A DNA stretch of 33,260 nucleotides. It comes from Akkermansia muciniphila (lineage in GTDB: Bacteria; Verrucomicrobiota; Verrucomicrobiia; Limisphaerales; UBA9464). How positions within the stretch are numbered: the stretch's first letter is position 1; each line of letters opens with the position of its first letter. The notes beneath the pieces are model-generated. The model was not told the origin of the DNA. It saw nothing but the letters and a program-made list of their open reading frames with translations, and searched no databases. The translations under genes and the position numbers were made by a program. The stretch spans positions 1-33,260 of the forward strand of contig CAMASJ010000007.1 in assembly GCA_945860685.1 (NCBI GenBank), read 5' to 3'. This document shows, in pieces, positions 12,643 through 15,925 of the stretch.

Positions 12643-12661
12643 AAAAATCCCGTCGGACGGG
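12643..12661 (-). terminator. Intrinsic terminator of the hpn-type operon
   Basis: On the minus strand CCCGTC and GACGGG (12661-12656 and 12654-12649) form a stem around a single base and are followed by ATTTTT. The one-base loop means the inner pairs would open in practice. A second copy of the palindrome lies at 12666-12677 without its own T-run. It sits about 60 bases past the stop of the hpnJ-like gene. Confidence 0.7.
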
Positions 12662-12723: not shown

Positions 12724-14178
12724 TCAGTGCACCAGAACGCCGCCCTGCGAGGCGGCCAGGTCGGCCTTGCGCTGGCCCAGGCTGCGGAAGAACTCGTAAC
12801 CCTCGCGGCAGCGGCGCACCAGGATGCTCTTGTCCTCGAGCATCGTCTTCACGATCCGCAGGATCGGGCCTGAGCGCAGGTAGTAGCGACGATAGAAGCG
12901 GTCGACGGACTCGAAGATCTCCTCCTTCGACAGGCCCGGATACTCCAGCGTGGACTGCTGGAAGCCGTCGCCGTGGATGATGTCGGTCTTGTCCTTCTTG
13001 GCGAACCAGCCGTTCTGCCGGGCCATCTCGTACAGTTCGGTGCCGGGATAGGGCGCCGCGAGGGAGACCTGGAGCGAGAACACGTCGAGCTCCTGGGCGA
13101 ACTGGATGGTCTGCTCGATGGTCTCGCGGGTCTCGACGGGCAGGCCGAGGATGAACGTGCCGTGGATCACCACGCCGGCCTTGTGGCACGCCTTGGTGAA
13201 GCGGCGCATCTCGTCGGTGGTGACGCCCTTCTTGATCCTCTTGAGGGTGTCCTCGTTGCCCGACTCGTAGCCGACGAGGAACAGGCGCAGGCCGCAGTCC
13301 TTGAAGAACGAGATGGTGTCGTAGTCGAGGTTCGCGCGGCTGTTGCAGCTCCAGTGGATTCCGAGAGGGGCCAGCTTCTTGGCGATCTCGCGGGCGCGGG
13401 GCAGGTTGGCGGTGAAGGTGTCGTCGTCGAAGAAGAACTCCCGGACCTGCGGAAACAGCTTCTTCATGTAGGCCATCTCGGCCGCGACGTTGTCCGCGGA
13501 ACGGACCCGGTACTTGTGTCCGCCGATGGTCTGGGGCCAGAGGCAGAAGGTGCACTGGGCCGGGCAGCCGCGTCCGGTGTACATCGAGATGTACGGATGC
13601 AGCAGGTAGCCGATGAAGTACTTCTCGATCTCCAGGTCGCGCTTGTAGACGTCGGCCACCCAAGGCAGGGCGTCCATGTTGTGGATCAGCTCCCGTTCCG
13701 GGTTGTGGATGATCTTCCCGTCCTTCTTGAAGCTGAGCCCGGAGATCGTCTCGAGAGGCCGGTCTTCGCAGACCTCCTTGCAGGTGAAGTCGAACTCCTT
13801 GCGTCCGACCCAGTCGATGGCGGGCGAAGCCTTGAGGGTCTCGGTGGGCAGCACGGCGGTGTGGGCGCCCACGAATCCGATCTTCGTCTCCGGCCGCTGG
13901 GCCTTGATGGCCTCGGCGATCCTGCTGTCGTTCTTCAGCGACGGCGTGGAGGTGTTGATGATGACGTGGTCGTGGTCCTTCGCGATGCGGAGGGTCTCCT
14001 CGACGCCGACGCCATGCGGCGGGCAGTCGAGCAGGCGGGAATCCGGAACCAGCGCGGCGGGCTGCGCGAGCCAGGTCGGATACCAGTAGGAGGTGACTTC
14101 GCGGCGGGCCTGGTAGCGGGCTCCGGCGCCGCCGTCGAAACCGTCGAAGGACGGAGGGGACAGGAACAGTGCGGACAT
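12724..14178 (-). CDS. hpnJ: HpnJ-like B12-binding-type radical SAM protein (hopanoid side-chain modification)
   Basis: The 484-residue protein starts MSALFLSPPSFDGFDGGAGA, the N terminus typical of HpnJ. The first about 180 residues correspond to the B12-binding-type domain of class B radical SAM enzymes. The radical SAM core carries the [4Fe-4S]-binding CxxxCxxC at Cys205, Cys209 and Cys212 (GRGCPAQCTFCLWP). In other bacteria HpnJ is needed to form the cyclitol ether head group of bacteriohopanetetrol from a glucosamine-linked precursor by ring contraction. The gene is third in an operon after a small lipoprotein and hpnH-like gene, 46 bases downstream of the latter. The frame extends upstream to 14370, but the family's usual start is at 14178. 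HpnI and HpnK, which act just before this step in known pathways, are not in the window. Confidence 0.85.
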   Translation of the reverse strand: MSALFLSPPSFDGFDGGAGARYQARREVTSYWYPTWLAQPAALVPDSRLLDCPPHGVGVEETLRIAKDHDHVIINTSTPSLKNDSRIAEAIKAQRPETKIGFVGAHTAVLPTETLKASPAIDWVGRKEFDFTCKEVCEDRPLETISGLSFKKDGKIIHNPERELIHNMDALPWVADVYKRDLEIEKYFIGYLLHPYISMYTGRGCPAQCTFCLWPQTIGGHKYRVRSADNVAAEMAYMKKLFPQVREFFFDDDTFTANLPRAREIAKKLAPLGIHWSCNSRANLDYDTISFFKDCGLRLFLVGYESGNEDTLKRIKKGVTTDEMRRFTKACHKAGVVIHGTFILGLPVETRETIEQTIQFAQELDVFSLQVSLAAPYPGTELYEMARQNGWFAKKDKTDIIHGDGFQQSTLEYPGLSKEEIFESVDRFYRRYYLRSGPILRIVKTMLEDKSILVRRCREGYEFFRSLGQRKADLAASQGGVLVH

Positions 14179-14224
14179 GGAAATCGGTGCGGTACTGGAT
14201 GGAAGTTGGGATCCGGCGAGGAGG

Positions 14225-15700
14225 TCAGTCGGTCTTGACCTCGATCTTCTTCGCGGCGGCGATCTTCGCCTTGAGGTCCGCCAGCTGGTCGTTGGCGGGT
14301 CCGGTGGAGCAGCCGCCGCCAGAGCCGCCGTGGTCGTGGTTGTGGTCGTGCCCATGCCCGGCACCGGCATCGTGGGGAAGGTCGTTTCCGCCGCGGGCGT
14401 AGGCCGACTTGGCCCCGGAGAACTCGCGGTTCACGGCGGCCTTGGCCTCGGCGAGGTGGCCCTTGCCGATGGTCGCGCCGTTGTAGGCGGTCTTGGTCAG
14501 CTCGGGACTGGAAGGATAGGGGGCCGGCCGGGAACCGAAGTTGTACTTGAAGTTGATCCAGCTGTCCCGGGGACTGCTGCTGAGCGCCGCCGTCGGCTCG
14601 AAGCCGGAATGCATCATGCAGTTCTCGCAACGTGCGTCGCGCCCACAGCCCTTGGCATCCACACCGAACTTGTCCCAGTTCACCTTCGCCAGCATCTCCT
14701 GGTAGGTCGGATAGTGGGTCTCGGTCATCACGTAGCACGGCGCCTTCCAGCCCCGCACGTTGTAGGTGGGCACCGCCCAGGCGCTGCAGGCTAACTCGCG
14801 CTTGCCGGCAAGGAACTCCAGGTAGCCCGGGGTCCCGAAGATGGTGAACATCTCGCCCCAGCGCTCGATGTTCTTGAACTTCTCGCGGGTGAGCTGGCGG
14901 GTCAGGAAGAAGTCCGTCGGATCCTTCCCCAGACGCTTGACCATGTCCTTCTTCGCCGCGTCGTAGTCGTAGCCGGGCGAAATGGTGTGGCCGTCCACGC
15001 CGAGCGAGCTGAGGAACTTGAACATCTCCTCCAGCTCCGCCGCGTCGGTCTCCCGGTACACGGTGGTGTTGGTGGCGACCTGATAGCCGAGGATCTTGGC
15101 CATCTGGATGGCCAGAACGCACTCCTTGAAGACGCCCTCGCGCTCCACGATCAGGTCGTGGGTGAACTCCAGGCCGTCGACATGGACATTCCAGTAATGC
15201 CACTTGCTGGGCTTGATCACGACCTTCTGGCGGGCGGCCGGGTCGGACTTGCGGATGGTCTCGGCCTCCTTCTCGGTGACCAGGCCTTCCGTGACGAGCT
15301 GCTGGAGGTTCTTCTCGATGGCCGGCGAGTAGTTGGCGGCCATGTACTCGCGCATCTTCTTCCGCATGAAGACGCCGTTGGTGCAGATGTAGATCATCCG
15401 TCCCTGCGCATGGAGTCCGGCAACCAGCTCCTCGATCTTTGGATAGATCAGCGGCTCACCGCCGCAGATCGAGATCATCGGGGCCTCGCATTCCGCGGCG
15501 GCGGCGAGGCACTGCTCGAGGGGAACGAGGTCCTTGAGGGAGGTGGAGTACTCGCGGATCCGCCCGCAGCCGGTGCAGGTCAGGTTGCAGGTGTGCAAGG
15601 GCTCCAGCTGGAGCACCATGGCAAACTTGCGGTTGCCCTTGAGTTTGTTGACGACGATGTGCCGCGCGATCTTGGCGGTCGGCGCGAGAGGAAAACGCAT
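14225..15700 (-). CDS. hpnH: HpnH-like radical SAM protein (adenosylhopane synthesis) with insertion and His-rich tail
   Basis: HpnH joins a 5'-deoxyadenosyl group to the hopene skeleton, the first step of hopanoid side-chain extension. The radical SAM CxxxCxxC is at Cys38, Cys42 and Cys45, followed by the GGEP motif (about residues 80-83). The later VHVDGLE and SPGYDYDAAK stretches and the C-terminal Cys-rich part (Cys352, Cys358, Cys361, in GFEPTA context) match HpnH. At 491 residues it is longer than the usual 330-390. About 45 extra residues lie around 120-167, and a tail of about 115 residues follows 375, with a histidine/aspartate cluster at 443-457, a Cys at 464 and a predicted helix at the end. 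The lipoprotein gene ends 9 bases upstream. The function call rests on family resemblance; the tail's role is unknown and metal binding is a guess. Confidence 0.82.
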   Translation of the reverse strand: MRFPLAPTAKIARHIVVNKLKGNRKFAMVLQLEPLHTCNLTCTGCGRIREYSTSLKDLVPLEQCLAAAAECEAPMISICGGEPLIYPKIEELVAGLHAQGRMIYICTNGVFMRKKMREYMAANYSPAIEKNLQQLVTEGLVTEKEAETIRKSDPAARQKVVIKPSKWHYWNVHVDGLEFTHDLIVEREGVFKECVLAIQMAKILGYQVATNTTVYRETDAAELEEMFKFLSSLGVDGHTISPGYDYDAAKKDMVKRLGKDPTDFFLTRQLTREKFKNIERWGEMFTIFGTPGYLEFLAGKRELACSAWAVPTYNVRGWKAPCYVMTETHYPTYQEMLAKVNWDKFGVDAKGCGRDARCENCMMHSGFEPTAALSSSPRDSWINFKYNFGSRPAPYPSSPELTKTAYNGATIGKGHLAEAKAAVNREFSGAKSAYARGGNDLPHDAGAGHGHDHNHDHGGSGGGCSTGPANDQLADLKAKIAAAKKIEVKTD

Positions 15701-15709
15701 GGTTCGAAA

Positions 15710-15925
15710 TCAGTTCCGGAGGGAGGGGGCCGGGGCGCCGACAGCGGCGACCCAGTTGGTCTGGGCACCGGGAATCGGCCGGGGCGGCTCGGCCTTCAGA
15801 AGGCCGGGCAAGAGGAAGGTGGCCGGGGACACGCTGTGTGAGCCGGAAATGCCGCCACAGCCGGTCGCCAACGAGCCGGCTGCAAGCAGGAATCCGGCGA
15901 CCTGCGCCCTGGTTGCCCTCTTCAT
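15710..15925 (-). CDS. Small lipoprotein of unknown function upstream of hpnH
   Basis: This 71-residue protein has a classic lipoprotein signal: a basic start (MKRATRAQ), a hydrophobic stretch and a lipobox LATGC with the acylated Cys at residue 23. The mature part is only about 48 residues, beginning GGISGSHSVSP and containing a Leu-Pro-rich segment, with no recognised domain. Its stop lies 9 bases before the hpnH-like start, so the two are probably co-transcribed. I do not know a function. It could help place hopanoid biosynthesis or transport proteins at a membrane, but that rests on gene order alone. Confidence 0.7.
   Translation of the reverse strand: MKRATRAQVAGFLLAAGSLATGCGGISGSHSVSPATFLLPGLLKAEPPRPIPGAQTNWVAAVGAPAPSLRN

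What the first reader, a model, noticed from the sequence alone, without database searches (positions are those of the whole stretch)
12724..15925. HpnH-HpnJ operon with a small lipoprotein and no other hopanoid genes
HpnH acts early and HpnJ late in hopanoid side-chain synthesis, yet they are adjacent here without HpnG, HpnI or HpnK. A 71-residue lipoprotein leads the operon. Either the rest of the pathway is elsewhere, or these enzymes make a different hopanoid or non-hopanoid product.
Basis: partly seen in the sequence, partly recalled or inferred. Interest (0 to 1): 0.5.

Follow-up and report, generated by a model that had tools for sequence, protein, structure and literature searches.

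The report
Lipoprotein-led hopanoid side-chain operon
A verrucomicrobial genome fragment carries two genes of bacterial hopanoid (sterol-like lipid) synthesis behind a tiny lipoprotein gene; most of the missing pathway genes turn up elsewhere in the same genome, so the pathway looks ordinary, but the lipoprotein is an unnamed gene that stays beside hpnH in most relatives examined and may be a new helper of it.

Summary
In detail: a 71-aa lipoprotein, HpnH (352 bits, cut-off 225) and HpnJ (742, cut-off 578) lie as one tight gene row at 12724-15925. "No other hopanoid genes" is true only of this contig; the window is one whole contig of a 398-contig, 89% complete genome. Elsewhere that genome has squalene-hopene cyclase, HpnD next to HpnK, a squalene-synthase-like gene, an HpnG homologue, and the 3' end of an HpnI-like gene cut by a contig end. 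Three same-genus genomes have that HpnI gene intact, and relatives of the HpnG homologue often sit beside shc or hpnK. So the pathway to BHT cyclitol ether is probably complete but scattered; another product is not supported. Two things look new. The lipoprotein, without a Pfam or NCBIfam family, matched in 35 of 39 relatives, and hpnH was directly downstream in all 30 loci fetched of 37 matches. It stays with hpnH even where hpnJ is elsewhere. HpnH has a 43-residue helical insertion absent from nine canonical HpnH compared. The lipoprotein's function is inferred: perhaps an envelope accessory. There are no lipid data.

The parts
15710..15925 (-). 71-aa predicted lipoprotein, first gene of the row (signal peptide, Cys23, core GCGGISGSHSVSPATFLLPG, variable tail)
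   Evidence: Cys23, Gly25, Ser33, Pro34, Pro40 and Gly41 invariant in 30 rows; pooled pN/pS 0.37 in the core against 0.84 (signal) and 0.80 (tail), synonymous sites near saturation
14225..15700 (-). hpnH, adenosylhopane synthase (radical SAM, DUF3463), insertion-bearing variant
   Evidence: TIGR03470 351.9 bits (cut-off 225.05), PF04055 and PF11946; C38, C42, C45 and C106 invariant in 35 rows
15215..15343 (-). 43-residue insertion in HpnH (residues 120-162), predicted helical
   Evidence: absent from 9 canonical HpnH; present in 58 of 59 sequences by pattern and in the 59th, L025, by eye; block mean pLDDT 92-97
14225..14485 (-). C-terminal extension of HpnH (about residue 406 on), His/Cys-rich, mostly low confidence in the model
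12724..14184 (-). hpnJ, radical SAM enzyme of BHT cyclitol ether synthesis, with a B12-binding-type domain
   Evidence: TIGR03471 741.7 bits (cut-off 577.6); PF02310 and PF04055
16006..16039 (-). terminator-like hairpin between the upstream TIM-barrel gene and the lipoprotein
   Evidence: 15-pair stem then a T run; 7 terminator-like sites in the region, 2.3 expected from shuffles
12649..12661 (-). weak terminator-like hairpin after hpnJ
   Evidence: 5-pair stem, then TTTTT

Best explanation
This is the hpnH-hpnJ part of an otherwise ordinary composite-hopanoid pathway in a Limisphaerales-like verrucomicrobium whose hpn genes are scattered over the chromosome. [quoted passage not shown] An HpnG homologue would remove adenine, an unknown enzyme gives bacteriohopanetetrol (BHT), HpnI adds N-acetylglucosamine, HpnK deacetylates it, and HpnJ forms the cyclitol ether. 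The 71-aa lipoprotein is probably co-transcribed ahead of hpnH and is most likely an envelope-side accessory of hopanoid handling, tied to hpnH rather than to hpnJ. Shown here: gene identities by profile, gene order, conservation and co-occurrence. Inferred: the enzymatic steps in this organism (roles from the literature), the product, co-transcription, lipid modification and the role of the lipoprotein. The confidence given is for the ordinary scattered pathway; the envelope role of the lipoprotein alone is about 0.4 to 0.5.
For: HpnH and HpnJ over NCBIfam cut-offs. Own genome: SHC fragment 593.4 bits against cut-off 431.1, HpnD 294.4 against 278.6, HpnK 259.7 against 232.6 adjacent to HpnD on C39. 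HpnI: 127-residue C-terminal piece at the very end of contig C140, 94-98% identical to intact HpnI-like genes in three same-genus genomes. HpnG homologue, 90.7 bits; its relatives lie near hpnK or SHC in 10 of the 30 relatives' loci fetched, and directly downstream of shc in G037, G038, G039, G047, G051, G054 and G058 by coordinates. In L102 hpnJ, hpnK and the hpnI homologue form one cluster. HpnJ and HpnI co-occur, Fisher p 3.6e-6 without correction for relatedness. Lipoprotein: match in 35 of 39 genomes; hpnH directly downstream in 30 of 30 loci fetched, the own one included, of 37 matches. In G059 and G061 the lipoprotein-hpnH pair lies on a different contig from hpnJ, and G047 has the pair but its best HpnJ match is 67 bits.
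Against: HpnG: 0 of 59 genomes reach the TIGR03468 cut-off, so its function rests on synteny in relatives; the own gene is not beside a hopanoid gene. HpnI: only 2 of 59 reach the cut-off of 310 bits; full-length same-genus genes score 251-277. HpnE: best own match 83.4 bits against cut-off 283, so squalene must come from the squalene-synthase-like gene, itself weakly assigned, or HpnE is in the missing part of the genome. Three genomes have HpnJ without an HpnI match of 160 bits or more. Of 80 named loci, 15 have room upstream of hpnJ but no hpnH there. Three loci with the same HpnH variant and hpnJ lack the lipoprotein (L055, L058, L063), as do Chthoniobacter flavus and two more genomes. Whether the four lipoprotein-negative relatives have hpnH was not tested, nor was the own genome searched for a second hpnH. 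No lipid analysis.
Confidence: 0.83

Rival explanations
1. HpnH and HpnJ here act on a different lipid, making a non-hopanoid or truncated product.
For: HpnH carries a 43-residue insertion and scores 352 bits where seven canonical forms score 485-546; HpnG and HpnI homologues fall under their cut-offs.
Against: Two canonical HpnH without the insertion score as low (365 and 369 bits), so the score is no sign of another function. SHC is in the genome and in 56 of 59 genomes at 160 bits or more. The cluster cysteines and C106 are kept. In the 8 named genomes with the inserted HpnH it is the only HpnH over cut-off. HpnI and HpnJ co-occur.
Confidence: 0.06
2. The short ORF is a leader whose translation controls hpnH (translational coupling), not a working lipoprotein.
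For: 3-19 bases between its stop and the hpnH ATG in 33 of the 40 loci with the motif, 9 here; short, with a variable tail.
Against: Lipobox Cys followed by Gly or Ser in all 30 aligned rows, constraint on the mature core after the cleavage site, and gaps of 44-84 bases in 7 of the 40 loci favour a working peptide.
Confidence: 0.2
3. The lipoprotein is an unrelated passenger gene that merely shares the locus.
For: No functional annotation; absent upstream of hpnH in 3 of 48 loci (L055, L058, L063).
Against: Kept beside hpnH over divergent families of the order, one match per genome in 33 of 35, hpnH next to it in 30 of 30 loci fetched, and also where hpnJ is elsewhere.
Confidence: 0.2

Closest known systems
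hpn gene clusters of Alphaproteobacteria (PMC12583986, 12 of 24 matching passages seen)
   Same: hpnH as first side-chain step; hpnI, hpnK and hpnJ for the cyclitol ether
   Different: There hpnI, hpnK and hpnJ are closely associated and most key genes co-localised; here hpnJ pairs with hpnH while hpnI and hpnK are elsewhere, and a lipoprotein leads the row
Acidobacteria hpn clusters (PMC5462960, passages seen)
   Same: Split hpn clusters, with hpnJ able to stand apart from hpnI and hpnK
   Different: shc and hpnH are clustered there; the word lipoprotein does not occur in the main text
Hopanoid genes of Verrucomicrobia (PMC9543262, passages seen)
   Same: Reports hpnF and hpnG in Chthoniobacter flavus and Limisphaera, and squalene synthase instead of hpnCDE in neutrophiles, which fits this genome
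   Different: hpnH and hpnJ do not occur in its main text, nor is this operon described in the passages seen
Canonical HpnH (loci L134 to L142)
   Same: Radical SAM core, DUF3463 region, conserved cysteines
   Different: No 43-residue insertion, no roughly 10-residue insertion near residue 250 and a shorter tail

Membership tests
HpnH (TIGR03470) | Whole-protein score over the curated cut-off | tested here: met
   351.9 bits against 225.05
HpnH (TIGR03470) | CxxxCxxC cluster motif and conserved Cys106 | tested here: met
   C38, C42, C45, C106 invariant in 35 sequences, C106 position also Cys in the 9 canonical rows; the role of Cys106 from a passage of PMC12583986
HpnH (TIGR03470) | Continuous match to the model without a large insertion (not a stated criterion of the family) | tested here: not met
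   Split match, insertion of residues 120-162; counted as a variant
HpnH (TIGR03470) | Adenosylhopane formation | not testable with these tools
   needs an enzyme assay
HpnJ (TIGR03471) | Whole-protein score over cut-off, with B12-binding-type and radical SAM domains | tested here: met
   741.7 bits against 577.6; PF02310, PF04055
HpnG (TIGR03468), gene on C298 | Score over cut-off | tested here: not met
   90.7 bits against 187.1; filed as a homologue only
HpnG (TIGR03468), gene on C298 | Linked to hopanoid genes | tested here: inconclusive
   Relatives' homologues lie beside shc or hpnK in some genomes; no hopanoid gene was recognised beside the own gene on its 5.2 kb contig
HpnI (TIGR03472), fragment on C140 | Score over cut-off | tested here: inconclusive
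   Gene cut by contig end, 50.8 bits; full-length same-genus genes 251-277 bits against 310
HpnK (TIGR03473), gene on C39 | Score over cut-off | tested here: met
   259.7 bits against 232.6
HpnD (TIGR03465), gene on C39 | Score over cut-off | tested here: met
   294.4 bits against 278.6
Squalene-hopene cyclase (TIGR01507), fragment on C193 | Score over cut-off | tested here: met
   593.4 bits against 431.1 for 553 residues
Bacterial lipoprotein | Hydrophobic signal with lipobox Cys | tested here: met
   by sequence pattern only; Cys invariant in 30 of 30 rows
Bacterial lipoprotein | Lipidation and sorting | not testable with these tools
   Gly or Ser after Cys suggests outer membrane by the E. 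coli rule (recalled, no call)
Any named small-lipoprotein family in Pfam or NCBIfam | Match to a model | tested here: not met
   Window member 0 families; among 30 members only weak hits (best E 0.0041), none shared by more than 2 members

The most novel reading that the evidence does not exclude
The lipoprotein is a dedicated accessory of hopanoid side-chain synthesis or export in this order, a new hopanoid gene that acts with the insertion-bearing HpnH, for example by taking adenosylhopane or BHT from the inner membrane toward the outer membrane.
Probability: 0.4. Interest if true: 0.6.

Novelty: new variant of a known kind. Interest (0 to 1): 0.38.

Why it matters
It explains the odd pairing of an early and a late hopanoid enzyme as gene dispersal, so these freshwater and soil Verrucomicrobiota are candidate makers of BHT cyclitol ether, a biomarker lipid. 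It also points to a small conserved gene that could be an order-specific hopanoid accessory factor and is cheap to test, and to a structural variant of HpnH that could matter for stereochemistry or substrate delivery.

Tried and rejected
Different-product reading: set aside because SHC, HpnK, an HpnI gene end and an HpnG homologue are in the same genome. HpnG as missing: considered because 0 of 59 genomes pass the cut-off; dropped after the homologue was seen beside shc and hpnK in relatives, though the own gene stands alone. A known domain in the HpnH insertion: Pfam at E up to 10 on four cut-out pieces gave only weak, unshared hits, best E 0.017. Solved structure: only distant radical SAM enzymes by sequence for HpnH (best E 1.4e-4), and by fold BlsE Z 18.5, SuiB and SkfB among others; no HpnH entry was listed, which does not exclude one. 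Upstream TIM-barrel gene as part of the operon: set aside because a terminator-like hairpin lies between and tblastn found it upstream only in L046 and the same-genus genomes G004, G006 and G013. First upstream check of loci without the lipoprotein used a pattern that also missed a real copy (L158), so it was repeated with a profile: four loci with it scored E 1e-20 or better (two of these belong to genomes whose copy is in the profile, L155 and L157 do not), and the best of the 15 others scored E 0.18. Papers: seven searches; judged by title and abstract start, none of the listed papers is about this operon, a lipoprotein beside hpnH or an HpnH insertion; only PMC12583986, PMC5462960 and PMC9543262 were opened, and only passages were seen. 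Much of the hopanoid literature is not in the library. Not searched: HpnN, HpnO, HpnP, HpnR, HpnA, HpnB and HpnH in the own genome, and HpnH as a family in the 59 relatives. Limits of the counts: the presence lists were typed by hand, counting HpnJ from 340 bits, SHC from 160 bits and HpnI from 160 bits plus the own fragment; the genomes are related and some incomplete; some loci are the same contig fetched under two names. A tblastn of HpnH in plasmids found 31 records, none covering 80% of the query, and was not used further.
Full report
What is there. On the minus strand of the window, in transcription order, lie a 71-aa predicted lipoprotein (15925-15710), HpnH (15700-14225) and HpnJ (14184-12724). 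HpnH scores 351.9 bits to TIGR03470 (cut-off 225.05) and HpnJ 741.7 bits to TIGR03471 (cut-off 577.6). The longer HpnJ ORF starts at 14370 but the profile begins at residue 65, so the start near 14184 is the likely one. A 15-pair terminator-like hairpin separates the row from the upstream TIM-barrel gene and a weak one follows hpnJ; no sigma-70-like promoter was found.

Where it comes from. The window is all of contig C7 of a 4.22 Mb genome in 398 contigs, 88.8% complete. The best named relatives are metagenome assemblies labelled Verrucomicrobiales, Verrucomicrobia, Limisphaerales, Pedosphaera or Verrucomicrobia subdivision 3, with a few odd labels.

The rest of the pathway. The same genome has squalene-hopene cyclase on C193, cut by the contig start (593.4 bits to TIGR01507, cut-off 431.1); HpnD (294.4, cut-off 278.6) next to HpnK (259.7, cut-off 232.6) on C39; a second squalene/phytoene-synthase-type gene on C4 (168.9 bits to PF00494); an HpnG homologue on C298 (90.7 bits, cut-off 187.1); and on C140, at the very end of the contig, the C-terminal 127 residues of an HpnI-like gene. 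That piece is 94-98% identical to intact HpnI-like genes in three same-genus genomes, which score 277 bits to the HpnI model (cut-off 310). No convincing HpnE was found (83.4 bits, cut-off 283). This fits a published statement, seen as a passage, that neutrophilic Verrucomicrobia have squalene synthase where acidophilic ones have hpnCDE (PMC9543262).

Are the weak HpnG and HpnI homologues the real ones? None of 59 genomes passes the HpnG cut-off and 2 of 59 pass the HpnI cut-off. But in the 30 relatives' HpnG loci fetched, hpnK or SHC lay nearby in 10 (hpnK in L160, L169, L172, L174, L184 and L187; SHC in L162, L174, L176, L177 and L179), and seven genomes have the HpnG homologue directly downstream of shc by coordinates. 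In locus L102 hpnJ, hpnK and the HpnI homologue stand together, and in L277 the HpnI homologue stands beside hpnK (1 of 30 HpnI loci). HpnJ and HpnI co-occur in 42 genomes, with 3 HpnJ only, 4 HpnI only and 10 neither. In Alphaproteobacteria hpnI, hpnK and hpnJ are reported as all present or all absent with two exceptions (PMC12583986, passage). So the pathway to BHT cyclitol ether is most likely complete and scattered.

The operon across relatives. 56 of 80 named loci have HpnH within 1 kb upstream of HpnJ; 15 had room and no HpnH there and 9 had too little sequence. The 15 include Chthoniobacter flavus (L114), Elusimicrobia, one Methylomirabilota and a few Limisphaerales-like genomes (L102, L105). 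So pairing hpnH with hpnJ is a common but not universal feature of this order.

The lipoprotein. Of 48 loci (47 relatives and the window) with a complete HpnH start and at least 300 bases upstream, 40 have the lipoprotein by motif and 5 of the 8 misses show a divergent copy by eye (L052, L053, L065, L081, L094); L055, L058 and L063 show none in 1,400 bases by profile. In a profile search of 39 genomes 35 matched, with one match each except G010 and G018, which have two; the four without a match, G036, G038, G041 and G043, also lack HpnJ. HpnH is directly downstream in 30 of 30 loci fetched, out of 37 matches. Where hpnJ is on another contig (G059, G061) or has no match over 67 bits (G047), the lipoprotein is still beside hpnH. 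The profile finds none upstream of hpnH in Chthoniobacter flavus, two further genomes with the inserted HpnH (G064, G068), or the nine canonical hpnH loci, one of which had only 397 bases upstream. The mature core is more constrained than its flanks (pooled pN/pS 0.37, against 0.84 in the signal and 0.80 in the tail), a rough measure because synonymous sites are near saturation. It matches no Pfam or NCBIfam family convincingly.

The HpnH variant. Against nine canonical HpnH, the window's HpnH has a 43-residue insertion (120-162), a roughly 10-residue insertion near 250 and a longer tail. The insertion was found in 58 of 59 sequences by pattern and in the last by eye, and also in Chthoniobacter flavus and other genomes that lack the lipoprotein. 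AlphaFold predicts it as helices with high confidence while most of the tail has low confidence; the core resembles other radical SAM enzymes (BlsE Z 18.5 over 274 residues, rmsd 3.8). The cluster cysteines and C106, a position reported as a determinant of 22R stereochemistry (PMC12583986, passage), are kept.

How it most likely works. HpnH makes adenosylhopane, the HpnG homologue and an unknown step make BHT, HpnI and HpnK build BHT glucosamine, and HpnJ makes the cyclitol ether (enzyme roles from PMC12583986 passages). [quoted passage not shown] an envelope role with the product, or a leader role through translational coupling, are the two readings left besides a passenger. The first is favoured by the conserved mature core. 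None of this has been tested by experiment.

Verdict. The finding as worded is explained: an ordinary pathway with scattered genes. What remains of interest is the conserved hpnH-linked lipoprotein and the HpnH insertion.

Noticed in passing
L009:11618-16544 (contig C39 of the same genome): An NtrC-type response regulator gene and a histidine kinase gene lie upstream of hpnD-hpnK on the same strand, which might mean regulated hopanoid synthesis.
   Followed up: no
window:14225-14485: The HpnH tail is rich in His and has a GGGC(S/G)(T/S)G-like motif in several relatives, perhaps metal binding.
   Followed up: no
window:9048-12554: A 1169-aa protein with three similar long repeats, two of them matched by a laminin-G-type Pfam model, converges on hpnJ.
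   Followed up: no
window:18998-20585: Two adjacent ExbD/TolR-like genes and an ExbB/TolQ-like gene, judged from the ORF sequences and recall only.
   Followed up: no
L112 and genome G063: A record labelled Hyphomicrobiales carries an HpnJ 70% identical to the window's, a canonical HpnH and the only HpnG over cut-off among 19 genomes; the label or the binning may be wrong.
   Followed up: no
L051, L058, L062, L083, L085, L113: Records labelled Akkermansia muciniphila or Prosthecobacter debontii may be mislabelled, as their HpnJ is 83-88% (Akkermansia labels) or 62% (Prosthecobacter label) identical to the window's and so like Limisphaerales-type or Chthoniobacter genomes.
   Followed up: no
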